NCBI GenBank assembly: GCA_025355765.1
Contig: JANXZB010000071.1
Location: forward strand, 1 to 52,755
Direction of reading: 5' to 3'
Length of the DNA: 52,755 nt
From: Actinomycetes bacterium
GTDB taxonomy: Bacteria; Actinomycetota; Actinomycetes; Nanopelagicales; Nanopelagicaceae
In this document: positions 8,446-48,917 of the stretch, piece by piece
Layout: each line of letters starts with the position of its first letter
Numbering within the stretch: the stretch's first letter is position 1
Position numbers and translations under genes: made by a program
The notes under the pieces: generated by a model
Told to the model about the DNA's origin: nothing
What the model saw: the letters and a program-made list of their open reading frames with translations, nothing else
Databases searched by the model: none

Positions 8446-9966
8446 TTATCGAACGGTGACGTCCACGGTATGCCAACCTTCGGCGCCATCGGGGACCACA
8501 GGGACGCTTCTACTTGATTGAAGTTCTCCCTTTCCATCTGTTGCCCGCACTGTAATAGTCCTCGTTCCGGGTTTTGCATCCCAATCAATCCACCATTGTC
8601 GCCATGTGGTCTTTGCCAGTGCAGGTCCAAGAGTTGCAGTGCGCCAGGGGTCGTTGTCGACGCGAACTTCAACTTTGGAAATCCCCCGCGTTGGTGCCCA
8701 CGCAACTCCCGCAATGGCTCTATTGCCGGACTTCACAGAACTTCCAATCGCAGGTGTATCGATTCTTGAAGATGTCTTGATTGGCGCTTGCGCAGACCAA
8801 CCTCTGGGTATCCAATAGCCCTGCGCCCGATCGAAGCGCGTTAGTTCAATTCTGGTGAGCCACTTTGTAGCAGATACGTAGCCGTACAAGCCAGGAACGA
8901 TAATTCGCGCGGGGAAACCATGATCAATCGGCAACGGTTCGCCGTTCATTCCTATCGCAATCATCGCGTCTCGTCCATCGAGGGCAGCAAGTGGAAAGCC
9001 AGCGGTAAAGCCGTCTACTGAGTGCCCCATCACTTGATCAGCCGAACCCGAAGGTGAGGCCTCTTTTATCAAGTCATCAAGGCGAATTCCAAGCCACCGG
9101 GCGTTTCCTACAAGGTTTCCGCCAACTTCATTTGAAACACAAGCGATGGTGTCATCGAGTTGGAAAACAGGTCTATCCGTAAGTTCTTTATACGTAAATT
9201 CGGTGGGGTTATCTACCATGCCGTCAATACGCAGGCGCCAGGTGTCAATATTGATATTTGGGACGATGATGGCCGTATCAATCCTGTAGAACTCATTATT
9301 CGGCGTGAAAAGTTTTGAAAGACCGGGGGTAGTCAGCGCTGGATCTTTTGGCGGAGGCGGCAGGAACTTCAGTGCTTTAGGCAGGACGATATTTAATCTC
9401 TTCAATTGCGCGCTGGCATGAGTGTGAAAGAAATTGCCGACGAATACTGCGCCCGCCGATCCCGCTGCGATGAACCCCACCGTTTTGAGAAGTTCTCGCC
9501 GATTTAGCCTTCCTTCTTCTACGTCAGTGGCAGTTGCGCGACTCTTAAGCAAACGCAGAATCCAAAGAGTGGTACCACCGCTAACCAACGATGGAAGCAG
9601 AGAGAGCACGTCGGAGCTGGCATCAAAGAAGGCCGAAGTCGCGCCGATGAGGGTCATGAGCGCGACCGTTGATGTTGCCCGGCTCTTCTTCCCAGAAAAA
9701 TATAGATGCCCGATGACCACGGCCAAGATCAGGACGACCAAATAGATCGTGATCACTAATGCTTGCTTATCATTGACGCCGAAGGATCTAATCGCGAATT
9801 CCTTGACGCGCTCTGGTACGTGATCGATAACACGGTTCCCAATTGAAACGACAGGAGCGTTTAGATTACTTTTTAACGAGGCAAAGAATTGCGAGAGCGC
9901 CAAACCGCCACCGACGGCAACTAATCCGAGCAGGCCGTCGATTCGTGTTCTGCCTTTAGAAAGCAT
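8446..9966 (-). CDS. Membrane-anchored molybdopterin-dependent oxidoreductase (sulfite oxidase-like)
   Basis: The 506-residue product begins with four hydrophobic segments (about 10-150), then a twin-arginine-like NRRELLKTVGF followed by another hydrophobic stretch, so the catalytic part is probably exported and tethered. The Mo-cofactor domain contains DTIACVSNEVGGN with the molybdenum-ligand Cys276, DDTIACVS context, GHSVDGFTAGFPL and PGLYGYVSATKWL. A C-terminal Mo-co dimerisation-type beta domain ends it (KVEVRVDNDPW, WRQWWIDWDA). Sulfite or a related S/N-oxide is the likely class of substrate but not proven. No separate cytochrome or YedZ-like partner is adjacent; the N-terminal membrane block may replace one. 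The ATG at 9966 is preceded by a leaderless -10 hexamer. Confidence 0.92.
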   Translation of the reverse strand: MLSKGRTRIDGLLGLVAVGGGLALSQFFASLKSNLNAPVVSIGNRVIDHVPERVKEFAIRSFGVNDKQALVITIYLVVLILAVVIGHLYFSGKKSRATSTVALMTLIGATSAFFDASSDVLSLLPSLVSGGTTLWILRLLKSRATATDVEEGRLNRRELLKTVGFIAAGSAGAVFVGNFFHTHASAQLKRLNIVLPKALKFLPPPPKDPALTTPGLSKLFTPNNEFYRIDTAIIVPNINIDTWRLRIDGMVDNPTEFTYKELTDRPVFQLDDTIACVSNEVGGNLVGNARWLGIRLDDLIKEASPSGSADQVMGHSVDGFTAGFPLAALDGRDAMIAIGMNGEPLPIDHGFPARIIVPGLYGYVSATKWLTRIELTRFDRAQGYWIPRGWSAQAPIKTSSRIDTPAIGSSVKSGNRAIAGVAWAPTRGISKVEVRVDNDPWRTATLGPALAKTTWRQWWIDWDAKPGTRTITVRATDGKGELQSSRSVPVVPDGAEGWHTVDVTVR

Positions 9967-9972
9967 GCAGGT

Positions 9973-9978
9973 ATGCTA
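9973..9978 (-). promoter_or_regulatory. -10 hexamer for leaderless molybdoenzyme mRNA
   Basis: On the minus strand TAGCAT is followed by six bases and the ATG at 9966; no ribosome site is seen. Confidence 0.5.
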
Positions 9979-10183
9979 ACGGAATGTATTGGATGTGCGC
10001 GGTTTTATTGCCGGTTCCTTGCGCGAGAAAATAGAGTCGCGCCTGCAAGAATGAGTATTCCTGGTAGCCACTGCCGCCAGGCGCTCCCATGGTCGGGTTT
10101 TTCAATTTACTGTCCAGTAACGTGGAGCCGCGTCAGAATCTGTTGCAAGGGTGTCGAAATGAGTTGGTCGCGCATACGAACCT

Positions 10184-11240: not shown

Positions 11241-12704
11241 TTGAGCAATTTCGACTCGGCACCACGCCTGGAGCGCAATGCAATCGGACTACGCGAAGTT
11301 GTATTCCAGTCCATCTGTTCGATGGCACCCGGAGCTGCAATCGCGGCTTCAATCCCATTTGGTTCACCGCTTGCAGGTGGGGCACTTCCACTTGCAGTGA
11401 TCGTGGCGTTTATCGGGATACTTTTTACGGCTTCAAGTATCGGACAACTCGCCAAGCACATTCCTGCGGCTGGTTCAGTAGCAACCTACAGTGCGGTCGG
11501 ACTCCGGCCATGGGTAGGCTTCCTAGTGGGGTGGGGATATTCGGCAGTTGAAATCCTCATTGTTCCTCTCGTTATGCTTCAACTGGGCTACACAGTTGCT
11601 GGCGAATGGAATTCACAGCAGAAATCCTTTCCCATCGGAGCATGGTGGGTCTTCACCGCTGTAGGAACGCTGCTGATATGCGGACTGGTGTGGCGCGGGG
11701 TAAAGACTTCGGCGAAGGTCGGAACTTGGCTCGGCTTCATCGAGATTACGGTTTTCAGTGTGCTGGCAGTCGTATTGGTTATAAAGGCGGGCAGCGCGAA
11801 TACTCTCTCTGTCTTCACAACTGCGCACGCGAATGCGCCAGGATTCTCAGGATGGTCAGGCGTTATCGCAGGCTCTGTTTTCACCCTCCTGGCCTTCTCA
11901 GGTTTTGAAGCTGCCGCACCGCTAGCAGAGGAGGCGGAAAATCCACGAAGAAATGTTCCTCGCGCGATCATGATCGCCACTGTTTCCATTGGAGTGCTCT
12001 ATACCTTTACCACTTACGCCGCAACAGTGGCATACGGCCCAGATAAATTTAAGGGTTTCTCAAGTTACAACAATGGTGTCCCATGGGATGGTCTTGCAAA
12101 AAGCGTCTCAACATTATTCTGGGTTCTGGTTCTATTCGCCATTATCAATTCGACATTGGCAAATGCCAACGCTGGTGCGAATGTCTTTACTCGTACGGCG
12201 TATGCCTTTGGTCGTATCGGAGCTTTCCCACGATCGCTTTCTAAACTGGATCCTAAGTTCAAATCTCCACGGAACGCAATTGTCCTTCAGTTGATACTTG
12301 GATTGATTATTGGGTTGGGTCTCGGCGCAAAATACACACCTCAGGTCGCATTTGGTGTAGTTGCTACAGGATTGGTGATTATTGTCGTCCTCGTATACAT
12401 CGTGGCAAACCTCGCGTGTATCGGATACTTTGCAAAACACCGCAAAGATGAGCGCCACCCGGTGATCCACATCTTTGTGCCCATTGTTGGAATTGTGTTC
12501 TTGATCCCAGGGTTTTTCAGCGCAGCAGGATTTACTGGAATACCGGGACTTAGCTTCATCGTTCCATTGGCAGCACCTCTAACCTATTCGGCATATGCAA
12601 TGGCCGTCTGGATGATTTTGGGGCTAGTCGCACTCCGGTACTTGCACTCAAAAGATCCCAAGGCAATAGAAGCGGTTGCCTACGTGCATCTTGACCACGA
12701 ATAG
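11241..12704 (+). CDS. APC-family amino acid/amine permease
   Basis: A 487-residue transporter with about twelve hydrophobic segments and the APC signature near the N-terminus (GLREVVFQSICSMAPGAAIA) followed by PAAGSVATYSAVGLRP and the conserved central GFEAAAPLAEEAENPRRNVPRA, the helix 6-loop 7 region of the family. The TTG start at 11241 is supported by a GAGGAG ribosome site. The preceding acetamidase gene is 41 bases upstream in the same direction. Substrate is unknown; the context favours an amide, amine or amino acid that the amidohydrolase then processes. Its stop directly abuts the stop of the convergent GNAT gene. Confidence 0.9.
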   Translation: MSNFDSAPRLERNAIGLREVVFQSICSMAPGAAIAASIPFGSPLAGGALPLAVIVAFIGILFTASSIGQLAKHIPAAGSVATYSAVGLRPWVGFLVGWGYSAVEILIVPLVMLQLGYTVAGEWNSQQKSFPIGAWWVFTAVGTLLICGLVWRGVKTSAKVGTWLGFIEITVFSVLAVVLVIKAGSANTLSVFTTAHANAPGFSGWSGVIAGSVFTLLAFSGFEAAAPLAEEAENPRRNVPRAIMIATVSIGVLYTFTTYAATVAYGPDKFKGFSSYNNGVPWDGLAKSVSTLFWVLVLFAIINSTLANANAGANVFTRTAYAFGRIGAFPRSLSKLDPKFKSPRNAIVLQLILGLIIGLGLGAKYTPQVAFGVVATGLVIIVVLVYIVANLACIGYFAKHRKDERHPVIHIFVPIVGIVFLIPGFFSAAGFTGIPGLSFIVPLAAPLTYSAYAMAVWMILGLVALRYLHSKDPKAIEAVAYVHLDHE

Positions 12705-13199
12705 CTAGTGGGATAGATCCTTCTGCATAACGTCAATGTCGAGATTCCCCAATTTTGACGAAACTAGAGGTTGGTATCCACGTTTGTTGTAGAAGGCGCT
12801 TTGATCCTCGGTCCAGAGATGAAGAACTCTGATTCCGAGTGAAAGCGCCTTCTCTTCAAGCAAAGTGAGTATCTGCGTTCCGATACCTTCGCCACGCAAT
12901 TCTGGATTGACGATAAAGGCTGCGATCCAGGGTTTCAAATGGCGGAACTCTTCTAGCTCGTCAAAATCAACAAGGCTGATTGTGCCAACTGTCTCTGTGC
13001 CATGTTTGGCGATGAAAACGAGTTCCTGGCCTTCGCCTTCCCACGATTGATAGTTTGCTCGAACTGAATTCGTGTAGAAATCAGTCCAATCCTGAGGTGA
13101 ATAGTTGGGAAAGTGGTCGCCCCACAAGGCCAGTGCCCAAGAGAGCACAAGGGCTGCATCCTTCGGTGATTCGCGTATTGGAACCAACGAAATCTCCAT
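12705..13199 (-). CDS. GNAT-family N-acetyltransferase
   Basis: A 164-residue single-domain GNAT protein. The acetyl-CoA-binding motif A is ELRGEGIGTQIL (Q/R-x-x-G-x-G/A type), preceded by the beta-4 strand AAFIVNPE and followed by LGIRVLHLWTEDQSAFYNKRGYQ, the typical beta-5/motif B end. It transfers an acetyl group from acetyl-CoA to an unknown amine in the cytoplasm. The gene is divergent from the methyltransferase-like gene at 13218 with only 18 bp between start codons, and both genes have leaderless -10 hexamers that overlap. Confidence 0.9.
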   Translation of the reverse strand: MEISLVPIRESPKDAALVLSWALALWGDHFPNYSPQDWTDFYTNSVRANYQSWEGEGQELVFIAKHGTETVGTISLVDFDELEEFRHLKPWIAAFIVNPELRGEGIGTQILTLLEEKALSLGIRVLHLWTEDQSAFYNKRGYQPLVSSKLGNLDIDVMQKDLSH

Positions 13200-13204
13200 G
13201 AGGG

Positions 13205-13211
13205 TAATCTA
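13205..13211. promoter_or_regulatory. Overlapping divergent -10 hexamers shared by two leaderless genes
   Basis: Plus strand: TAATCT at 13205-13210 lies 7 bases before ATG 13218. Minus strand: TAGATT at 13206-13211 lies 6 bases before ATG 13199. Five base pairs belong to both hexamers, and each promoter's -35 region must lie within the other gene's coding sequence. Confidence 0.5.
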
Positions 13212-13217
13212 TCTTCA

Positions 13218-13691
13218 ATGAGCACGACATCGGAGAGTCCAAACCGATTCCAAGCATGGGTGTTTGTATTTATCCAGGCATTATTGCTTGTTCTATTAGT
13301 TTTTCTTGACCGAAAGATGGGTCCACAAATTCACCGTTTTACCTTTTTGGGTTCACCCTTTGAGTGGTTCGGAGTTATCGGAGTCCTAGTGTGTGCTGCA
13401 AGTCTGCGCAGATCACTTACGGCCGTACCAATCCCCAAGGAGGAGGGGGAACTCAGCATGAGCGGGCCCTATCGGTATGTTCGCCACCCGATGTATTCAA
13501 GCGTCTTGCTCTTAGCCCTCGGAATTTCCCTTAATAGCGGCAGCGCCATCAAATATTTTTTAGTGCTCTGCTTGTCTGTACTGTTCTATTTCAAGTCTAT
13601 ATACGAGGAGAAGTATCTGAGATTGAAGTATCCAGAATACGCAGAGTACTCGGCGCGAATTCCTCGCTTTATTCCTTTTACGAAAAAGTGA
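13218..13691 (+). CDS. Isoprenylcysteine carboxyl methyltransferase-like membrane protein
   Basis: A 157-residue integral membrane protein with about four hydrophobic segments and the ICMT/PEMT-type signature GPYRYVRHPMYSS, which in the family contacts S-adenosylmethionine, and a C-terminal EEKYLRLKYPEYAEYSARIPRFIP, also characteristic. Bacterial members are small-molecule or lipid methyltransferase candidates; the substrate here is unknown. The product is complete and of normal length. It is divergent from the GNAT gene through a shared -10 region, and its TGA touches the stop of the convergent DUF3224 gene. Confidence 0.88.
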   Translation: MSTTSESPNRFQAWVFVFIQALLLVLLVFLDRKMGPQIHRFTFLGSPFEWFGVIGVLVCAASLRRSLTAVPIPKEEGELSMSGPYRYVRHPMYSSVLLLALGISLNSGSAIKYFLVLCLSVLFYFKSIYEEKYLRLKYPEYAEYSARIPRFIPFTKK

Positions 13692-14099
13692 TTAGAGGGA
13701 GACTTCCATCTCCCACGTGCAACCCTTCTGATCGGCGGCGTATTCGCCCACTCCACTGATGCCTTCCAGTTCGCCCGTACCTGATCCAGGGATAATCGAT
13801 AACTCGGAGGTGGCGCCACCGCCGACGAAAGTTCCCATGTCATTGACGGTAAAGCTTCCTGATTTCCCCTGGAGGATTCCTATGATCCGTATCTGTCCGA
13901 CGTAGAAGGCATGAGCTTTGTGCATGTCCTCAGAATCAAATGAAGAGTAGAACATGAGATATTCCACTTTTGCGATTCCTTCAATGTCACCTTCAAAGTT
14001 GAATTCCGCAGTGATCTTAGTCAGCTTCTTGTGATCTTCAATTATTTCTATTGTCTGTTCGTCCCACTTGGCAGGTACGTAGGTTCCGTAAAGTCTCAT
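13692..14099 (-). CDS. DUF3224 domain-containing protein
   Basis: A 135-residue soluble protein matching the DUF3224 pattern: W/DEQ start, KLTKITAEFNFEGDIEG, EYLMFYSS, and the Gly-rich SGSFTVNDMGTFVGG and PGSGTGELEGISGVGEY blocks that predict a small beta-barrel. Function of the family is unknown. It is the last gene of the polyamine-type transporter operon: 12 bases after the permease stop, with its own ribosome site (AGGGAG, 7 bases before ATG). The operon position alone does not prove a transport role. Confidence 0.88.
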   Translation of the reverse strand: MRLYGTYVPAKWDEQTIEIIEDHKKLTKITAEFNFEGDIEGIAKVEYLMFYSSFDSEDMHKAHAFYVGQIRIIGILQGKSGSFTVNDMGTFVGGGATSELSIIPGSGTGELEGISGVGEYAADQKGCTWEMEVSL

Positions 14100-14111
14100 G
14101 CTTGATCTCCC

Positions 14112-14918
14112 TTAGAAGCGTCCACCACTCGTTGAATCTTGACTCAAACGTTGCGATAAGTAAATCGGAATTACTGAAACTACAACGAGGGTTGCCGCGA
14201 CGACATTGACGATAGGCGCCTGACTTGGCCGGAAAAGGTTGTTATAAATCCATATAGGCAGGGTCTGGATGCCAGGACCAGCCGTAAAAGTTGTGACGAC
14301 AATTTCATCGAAGGAAAGGCCGAAAGCAAGGAGTCCACCTGCGAAAAGTGCTGATGCCAGGTTCGGCAAGGTGATTAACCTGAATGTGGTGATGCCATTG
14401 GCGCCTAGGTCCATGGATGCCTCTTGCAGTGATGTTCCCATTCTGCGAAGTCGGGCGAGGGCGTTGTTGTATACAACCACAATGCAGAATGTGGCGTGCC
14501 CAATCACGATGGTGAGCAGCCCCGTTGAAAGGCCGATCTGTTGGTTGAAAGCATTGCTTAGCGCAATACCGGTTACGACGCCCGGCAGAGAGATCGGCAG
14601 AACCACCAGGAGAGAAATGATGTCTTTCCCAAAAAAGTTGTATCGGCTTACTGCAAATGCCAATGATGTGCCCAGCAATAAGGCGATGAAGGTCGCAGAC
14701 AAGCCTGCTGCAAGACTCCACGACAGTGCTTTTCGAACCCCCGTATTTGAGATTGCCTTACCCCACCATTCAGTGGTGAAACGCGAAGGCGGCCAACTGA
14801 AGGTACGGCTGCTATTGAATGAGTTGATCACCACAACGGAGAGTGGAACATAAATAAAAGCCAGGCCGATTCCCATGAGAGACATCAGCGCGTACCTGGC
14901 ACGATTTGAAATAGTCAT
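14112..14918 (-). CDS. Polyamine-type ABC transporter permease (PotC-like)
   Basis: A 268-residue inner-membrane permease with about six hydrophobic segments. The EAA loop that docks the ATPase reads LQEASMDLGANGITTFRLITLPNL, in two parts, with the conserved EAxxxxG spacing. The N-terminal PLSVVVINSFNSS and the SFDEIVVTTFTAGPG segment are typical of PotC/PotI-type subunits that move spermidine or putrescine. The ATG directly follows the TAA of the PotB-like gene with no gap, indicating translational coupling. Substrate identity (polyamine versus another cation) is by family analogy. Confidence 0.92.
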   Translation of the reverse strand: MTISNRARYALMSLMGIGLAFIYVPLSVVVINSFNSSRTFSWPPSRFTTEWWGKAISNTGVRKALSWSLAAGLSATFIALLLGTSLAFAVSRYNFFGKDIISLLVVLPISLPGVVTGIALSNAFNQQIGLSTGLLTIVIGHATFCIVVVYNNALARLRRMGTSLQEASMDLGANGITTFRLITLPNLASALFAGGLLAFGLSFDEIVVTTFTAGPGIQTLPIWIYNNLFRPSQAPIVNVVAATLVVVSVIPIYLSQRLSQDSTSGGRF

Positions 14919-44105: not shown

Positions 44106-44195
44106 GGTGGCGTGTCCGAGCGGCCAAAGGAGCACGCCTCGAAAGCGTGTGTTGGGGAAACTCAACCGTGGGTTCAAATCCCACCGCCACCGCCA
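44106..44195 (+). tRNA. tRNA-Ser (anticodon CGA)
   Basis: Acceptor GGTGGCG pairs with CGCCACC at 44185-44191, discriminator G and encoded CCA follow. The anticodon stem CACGC/GCGTG encloses CTCGAAA, anticodon CGA. A long variable arm (TGTTGGGGAAACTCAACC) is typical of serine tRNA, and the T arm is GTGGG TTCAAAT CCCAC. Confidence 0.95.
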
Positions 44196-48670: not shown

Positions 48671-48758
48671 TGGCGGAGGATAGGGGATTTGAACCCCTGA
48701 AAGGTTGCCCTTTACACGCTTTCCAAGCGTGCGCACTCGGCCGCTATGCGAATCCTCC
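48671..48758 (-). tRNA. tRNA-Ser (anticodon GGA)
   Basis: Minus strand: acceptor GGAGGAT pairs with ATCCTCC, followed by discriminator G and encoded CCA. Anticodon stem CACGC/GCGTG encloses TTGGAAA, anticodon GGA. A long variable arm (AAAGGGCAACCTTT) and T arm GGGG TTCAAAT CCCC support serine identity. Confidence 0.95.
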
Positions 48759-48796
48759 GTGGAGAACTCTAGCGGTGCTCTAACTATGATTAGCGC

Positions 48797-48888
48797 CAGA
48801 TCCCTCGTGCGGCATTATCGGGCTGAACTCCCCCAGGGCTGGAAGGCAGCAAGGGTAGGCCCGCTCTAGTGGGTGCACGAGGGGTCCT
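48797..48888 (+). ncRNA. ffs: Signal recognition particle RNA, small bacterial 4.5S type
   Basis: The conserved SRP core reads GGCTGAACTCCCCCAGG, then GGCTGGAAGGCAGCAAGGG (GGAA tetraloop at the helix-8 tip and the asymmetric internal loop that binds Ffh). The ends ATCCCTCGTGC (48800-48810) and GCACGAGGGGT (48875-48885) pair to close the hairpin. Position just upstream of dnaX and next to tRNA-Ser is the usual actinobacterial place. Exact ends are approximate. Confidence 0.93.
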
Positions 48889-48917
48889 CTTATTAGATAA
48901 GTGGAAAGGGGATAGCG

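What the first reader, a model, noticed from the sequence alone, without database searches (positions are those of the whole stretch)
13197..13220. Two divergent leaderless genes share overlapping -10 boxes in an 18-bp intergenic region
The starts of the GNAT gene (13199, minus) and the ICMT-like gene (13218, plus) are 18 bp apart. TAATCT (plus, 7 bases before its ATG) and TAGATT (minus, 6 bases before its ATG) overlap by five base pairs. The polymerase cannot open both promoters at once, and each -35 must be inside the other gene's coding sequence, so the two genes should be expressed in a mutually exclusive way. This is an extreme compaction of a control region.
Basis: partly seen in the sequence, partly recalled or inferred. 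Interest (0 to 1): 0.6.

Follow-up and report, generated by a model that had tools for sequence, protein, structure and literature searches.

The report
Two genes sharing one two-way promoter
Two back-to-back genes of a small-genome actinobacterium appear to be switched on from one 7-base, two-way promoter squeezed between their start codons; this is a compact form of a known kind of bacterial promoter, and related bacteria use the same layout for other gene pairs.

Summary
It is not a chance arrangement: in three orthologous junctions from two related genomes the 18-bp spacing is kept and 14 of 18 bases are invariant, against 20 of 77 four-fold degenerate sites in the flanking genes. The genome has a strong leaderless signal (TANNNT 6-7 nt before the start). 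The layout recurs: a carboxyltransferase/biotin-ligase pair has exactly 18 bp and TAnnnTA in 10 of 10 family genomes taken without selection on the junction. Best reading: a symmetric-(-10) bidirectional promoter of the kind mapped in E. coli and Salmonella, whose two start sites fall on, or one base before, the two start codons. 'Mutually exclusive expression' is not supported: E. coli bidirectional promoters show little competition at basal activity, and several such pairs in relatives are functionally coupled. No -35 was found in either coding sequence. No transcription start has been measured. New variant of a known kind.

The parts
12705..13199 (-). GNAT-family acetyltransferase gene, start codon 13199-13197
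   Evidence: ORF, Pfam PF00583
13218..13691 (+). PEMT/ICMT-like methyltransferase gene, start codon 13218-13220
   Evidence: ORF, Pfam PF04191/PF04140; N-terminus aligned from residue 1 in three orthologues
13200..13217 (.). whole intergenic region, 18 bp
13205..13211 (.). symmetric -10 core TAATCTA
   Evidence: kept in orthologues
13205..13210 (+). -10 box TAATCT of the methyltransferase gene
   Evidence: gap 7 to the start lies in the leaderless peak
13206..13211 (-). -10 box TAGATT of the GNAT gene
   Evidence: gap 6 to the start lies in the leaderless peak
13217..13218 (+). predicted transcription start of the methyltransferase mRNA (13217 if the last T of the box is -7; 13218 if strictly leaderless)
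   Evidence: inference from box-to-start spacing; not measured
13199..13199 (-). predicted transcription start of the GNAT mRNA, A of its ATG
   Evidence: inference; not measured
13204..13221 (.). 18 consecutive columns invariant in four orthologous junctions (14 intergenic + ATGA)

Best explanation
The 18 bp are one minimal bidirectional promoter. RNA polymerase with the housekeeping sigma factor recognises the symmetric core TAATCTA in either orientation: read as TAATCT it starts the methyltransferase mRNA at 13217/13218, read as TAGATT it starts the GNAT mRNA at 13199. Both mRNAs are leaderless (or carry one extra base) and are translated from the AUG at their 5' end. Each single initiation event excludes the other, but at ordinary low activity the two genes should be expressed side by side, not as a switch. 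Shown: sequence, spacing, conservation, genome-wide leaderless signal, recurrence of the layout. Inferred: transcription starts, sigma factor, mode of translation, lack of competition.
For: Exact geometry. Predicted starts 13217/13199 are 18 bp apart, the commonest spacing of bidirectional start sites (PMC12825309 introduction; PMC10268837 passages). Leaderless peak at 6-7 nt; SD-like motifs in 3% of the 30 first-of-unit genes with TANNNT at gap 5-8 versus 31% of all 105. 14 of 18 intergenic bases invariant in 4 orthologues versus 20 of 77 four-fold sites; four-fold identity of the window to the others 0.38-0.41. TAnnnTA kept in three more distant junctions in which the methyltransferase gene has a longer leader with an SD-like motif (start codons chosen by eye). 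Two methyltransferase orthologues without the divergent partner are leaderless-like but lack the symmetric A (L006, L010). The 17-mer GTAATCTATCTTCAATG occurs only at these 4 junctions in 21 genus genomes at up to 1 mismatch, so it is not a regulon operator. Class evidence.
Against: No transcription start is mapped. A coding-score start caller put the methyltransferase start 42 bp further in. A at -6, the base that makes a box symmetric, is not enriched in leaderless-like promoters of divergent genes (6 of 42 at gaps up to 60 bp, 14 of 77 above) over same-strand ones (20 of 128). The -18T feature of E. coli bidirectional promoters is present at both predicted positions in 4 of 4 junctions, but T is not enriched at -18 in 255 leaderless-like genes. 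The 4 variable bases all lie on the GNAT side, so equal selection on both directions is not shown; why the bases between the + box and its ATG are invariant is not explained.
Confidence: 0.78

Rival explanations
1. Only one of the two boxes works (most likely TAGATT for GNAT or TAATCT for the methyltransferase); the other gene is read from elsewhere, for instance by read-through from the abutting same-strand neighbour (permease gene, stop 12704, into the methyltransferase; DUF3224 gene, stop side 13692, into GNAT), and the symmetry is accidental.
For: The reverse box costs one base (A at -6), found in 14-18% of leaderless-like promoters. Same-strand neighbours abut on both sides and only one weak terminator-like site was found in 12600-14200 against a shuffled mean of 1.5.
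Against: Both boxes sit at the leaderless distance; the junction is invariant through both boxes in 4 orthologues; TAnnnTA is kept where leaders differ; unpaired orthologues lack the symmetry (2 examples); other gene pairs have the same layout.
Confidence: 0.13
2. One reading: a switch in which expression of one gene shuts off the other.
For: Overlapping boxes cannot be occupied twice at once (sterics); strong activation in one direction can repress the other in E. coli.
Against: Little competition at basal activity in five of five tested E. coli promoters; no operator-like motif shared with other genes; functionally coupled pairs use the layout in relatives.
Confidence: 0.06
3. The conserved block is mainly a binding site of a transcription factor that controls both genes; the -10 resemblance is secondary.
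For: 14 contiguous invariant bases are more than two -10 boxes need.
Against: The 17-mer is found at no other place in 21 genus genomes at up to 1 mismatch; the more distant junctions keep TAnnnTA rather than the whole block.
Confidence: 0.03

Closest known systems
Bidirectional promoters with a symmetric -10 element (Warman et al., Nat Microbiol 2021, not held here; seen through sections of PMC12825309 and passages of PMC10268837)
   Same: Opposite start sites predicted 18 bp apart, one shared -10, -7T and -11A reciprocally paired
   Different: In those papers the starts are defined by RNA mapping and no leaderless use is mentioned in what I read. Here both predicted starts coincide with, or lie one base before, the start codons, so promoter and intergenic region are the same 18 bp
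Leaderless genes with TANNNT next to the ORF (PMC3898074 for M. tuberculosis, PMC3160421 for bacteria in general; passages)
   Same: TANNNT 6-7 nt before the start codon, no SD, no conserved -35
   Different: Those passages treat genes one at a time; here two such genes share one box
M. tuberculosis prpD / Rv1129c, divergent and both leaderless (figure legend in PMC3898074)
   Same: Two divergent leaderless genes; the legend calls closely juxtaposed divergent promoters common in M. tuberculosis
   Different: Spacing and -10 overlap are not given in the passages I saw

Membership tests
symmetric -10 bidirectional promoter | -10 boxes on both strands sharing TAnnnTA, with -7T and -11A reciprocally paired | tested here: met
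   TAATCTA 13205-13211; kept in orthologues
symmetric -10 bidirectional promoter | divergent transcription starts 7-25 bp apart, measured | not testable with these tools
   predicted 18 bp (13217 and 13199); no RNA data
symmetric -10 bidirectional promoter | -18T on each strand (common, not essential) | tested here: inconclusive
   T on both strands in 4 of 4 junctions, but T not enriched at -18 in 255 leaderless-like genes
leaderless gene | TANNNT about 6-7 nt before the start codon in a genome with that peak | tested here: met
   gaps 7 and 6; peak at 6-7
leaderless gene | no usable Shine-Dalgarno motif | tested here: met
   None on the - side; on the + side GAGG at 13200-13203 lies upstream of the -10 box, 14 nt from the ATG, and is not conserved (AGAT in G013)
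leaderless gene | mRNA 5' end at the start codon | not testable with these tools
   no RNA data
mutually exclusive promoter switch | expression of one gene falls when that of the other rises | not testable with these tools
   literature argues against it at basal activity

The most novel reading that the evidence does not exclude
Bacteria of this family carry a selected class of control region in which a symmetric 7-bp -10 core and two start codons about 18 bp apart are the whole device: promoter, both transcription starts and both translation starts within 24 bp. The rigid spacing persists through large protein divergence (biotin ligase/carboxyltransferase pair in at least four genera) because any insertion or deletion would break a promoter or a leaderless start. 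The single core would tune both genes together, so that core mutations shift functionally coupled pairs in step.
Probability: 0.4. Interest if true: 0.65.

Novelty: new variant of a known kind. Interest (0 to 1): 0.5.

Why it matters
It joins two known features, symmetric -10 promoters and leaderless mRNAs, into what may be about the smallest possible control region for two divergent genes. Because 5' ends, boxes and start codons all lie in 24 bp, single-base changes separate the two directions cleanly (13205 against 13211), which makes the open question of how bidirectional promoters share or contest polymerase directly testable. It also gives a way to predict such promoters in leaderless genomes from sequence alone.

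Tried and rejected
Rejected as explanations: a shared operator (17-mer unique to the four orthologous junctions in 21 genus genomes); -35 elements inside the partner genes; start-codon A acting as a general -18T element of the partner promoter (no T enrichment at -18 in 255 genes); general selection for symmetric boxes at divergent genes (no A enrichment at -6).

Pattern hits that are not promoters: CAT?GATCTAATTTAATTGG?ATG recurs in four genera, but the ATG-side reading frame (81-82 aa, no partner ORF) looks like the inside of a conserved coding sequence (L228, L230, L250; naming it would be recall). The 17-bp hit CATTTGCCTACCCTACTGTGATG recurs in many genus g1 and g16 genomes next to one conserved ORF of 283-290 aa only; the opposite ORF (38-94 aa) varies, so I do not count it as a two-gene case. 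In L203 the + start is probably upstream of the true one (by eye), so 9 of 30 may be 8. L333 and L342 pass the length cut but one partner looks spurious.

Raw pattern counts are weak evidence: TAnnnTA with 18 bp occurs in 77 of 121 genomes, with 26 bp in 51 of 121, and the AT control in 117 of 121. Only the test for two long ORFs separates them (9, 0 and 0 of 30 loci each), and 6 of the 9 are one orthologous pair.

The gene caller was home-made (coding score on codon frequencies); it misplaced the methyltransferase start, so the spacing histogram is unreliable; one search replaced it by testing all start codons near the called ones.

No tool for RNA data exists here.

Full report
What is there. 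Window 13197-13220 reads CAT|GAGGGTAATCTATCTTCA|ATG. The - strand gene (12705-13199, GNAT acetyltransferase) and the + strand gene (13218-13691, PEMT/ICMT-like methyltransferase) begin at the first start codon of their open frames. TAATCT (13205-13210) ends 7 nt before the + ATG; TAGATT (13211-13206) ends 6 nt before the - ATG; both lie in TAATCTA, overlapping by 5 bp. If the last T of each box is -7, the starts are 13217 (+) and 13199 (-), 18 bp apart; the - start is the A of its ATG, the + start is one base before its ATG.

Leaderless? In 234 kb sampled from the same genome (window included; 1.70 Mb in 138 contigs, 92% complete), TANNNT lies 6 nt before 16 and 7 nt before 11 of 105 first-of-unit genes, at most 5 at any other of 40 offsets; SD-like motifs occur in 3% of the 30 genes with the box at gap 5-8 but in 31% of all 105. 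Eight sampled relatives show a peak at 6, seven of them clearly and G007 (18 genes) too few to tell. Leaderless genes are known to be common in actinobacteria (PMC3160421, passages; PMC3898074, passages; PMC6448022, passages).

Conservation. The same divergent pair was found in 6 other places in 5 of 20 other genomes of the genus. In G013 and twice in G015 the junction is also 18 bp; the last 14 intergenic bases and the following ATGA are identical in all four. By contrast only 20 of 77 shared four-fold sites (11 of 43 and 9 of 34) are invariant in all four, and the longest invariant run in the compared coding sequence is 10. So the block is under selection. In G018, G016 and G005 (50-57% protein identity) the junction is longer (about 46, 46 and 72 bp by my reading of the start codons) and the methyltransferase gene has an SD-like motif, but a TAnnnTA core is still there (TAATCTA, TAATGTA, TAAATTA, alignment). 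Two methyltransferase orthologues not next to the GNAT gene (L006, L010) have a leaderless-like box without the symmetric A.

Is it a class? In 193 divergent pairs from 1.60 Mb of nine genomes, 35 have TANNNT 6-7 nt before a start on both sides; control offsets gave 0, 1 and 1. The smallest spacings are 18 and 18 (the window, and a carboxyltransferase/biotin-ligase pair in G016), then 22, 23, 23, 24, 25, 27, 29. The commonest E. coli spacings between divergent starts are 18, with 10 and 23 also common. The pattern CAT-N5-TAnnnTA-N6-ATG in 121 family genomes gave loci of which 9 of 30 examined have ORFs of at least 75 aa on both sides, against 0 of 30 for an ATnnnAT centre and 0 of 30 for a 26-bp spacing; the 9 are 4 independent pairs, one with a doubtful start. 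The carboxyltransferase/biotin-ligase junction (PF01039; TIGR00121) is exactly 18 bp with TAnnnTA in all 10 family genomes with a match (2 of genus g1, the window's own genome among them, and 8 of g16; G021 had no match), and in 4 more that I had picked by the pattern, from g1, g16, g3 and g12. In the 20 loci from other families fetched by the same search (of 137 such genomes with a match) none shows this junction; 8 of them have the ligase divergent but with a different gap. Other pairs seen among chosen loci: glycerol kinase/glycerol-3-phosphate dehydrogenase-like (L212, L246), nucleoside hydrolase/PfkB kinase (L237, L240, L243), sugar nucleotidyltransferase/dehydratase at 17 bp (L332).

Mechanism. 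The data fit a symmetric -10 read in both directions by RNA polymerase (PMC12825309, introduction, first results section and discussion; PMC10268837, passages), with leaderless mRNAs on both sides. No -35 was found: best match 2 of 6 on each strand in the window, 2-4 in the orthologues, and no signal in 255 leaderless-like genes, as reported for M. tuberculosis. 'Mutually exclusive' holds for a single binding event only. In E. coli, five of five tested bidirectional promoters showed little competition at basal activity.

Results against. A is not enriched at -6 in divergent leaderless-like promoters, so symmetry is not selected in general; T is not enriched at -18; invariant bases beyond the boxes are unexplained; nothing here measures RNA.

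Novelty. Searches of the paper library for leaderless with bidirectional promoters (4 papers), leaderless with divergent and overlapping promoters (8 papers at 4 of 5 terms), and earlier ones listed none whose title or start of abstract describes leaderless pairs on one shared -10; I read only parts of seven papers. Both components are known; the combination as a recurring, spacing-constrained class appears undescribed within those searches.

Noticed in passing
window 9964-9986: A second symmetric box (CATGCAGGTATGCTAACGGAATG, 17 bp) lies at the start of the sulfite-oxidase-like gene 8446-9966 (-), leaderless gap 6. The + ATG at 9984 is not in frame with the formamidase-like gene downstream (called from 10195), so the + partner may be a transcript with a leader of about 200 nt or nothing.
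   Followed up: partly
window 11241-14099: Four genes alternate strand with almost no spacer: permease stop 12704 / GNAT stop 12705, methyltransferase stop 13691 / DUF3224 stop 13692. The 18-bp promoter is the only non-coding DNA in 2.86 kb.
   Followed up: no
L315-L344; G000:C105:10490-10512: A 17-bp TAnnnTA junction before a conserved ORF of 283-290 aa is nearly identical in many g1 and g16 genomes although the opposite ORF is short and variable; possibly a bidirectional promoter making a non-coding or small-protein RNA.
   Followed up: partly
L145, L148, L151, L156, L175: Doubly leaderless divergent pairs at 22-25 bp whose boxes share only TA, like the 23-bp class of E. coli.
   Followed up: no
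L004 and L020 (G015:C67 and G015:C64): G015 holds two copies of the GNAT/methyltransferase pair, about 70% identical at four-fold sites; a duplication or a mixed bin (5% contamination listed).
   Followed up: no
window 48796-48892 (+); 44106-44192 (+); 48674-48758 (-): Small SRP RNA and two tRNA genes.
   Followed up: no
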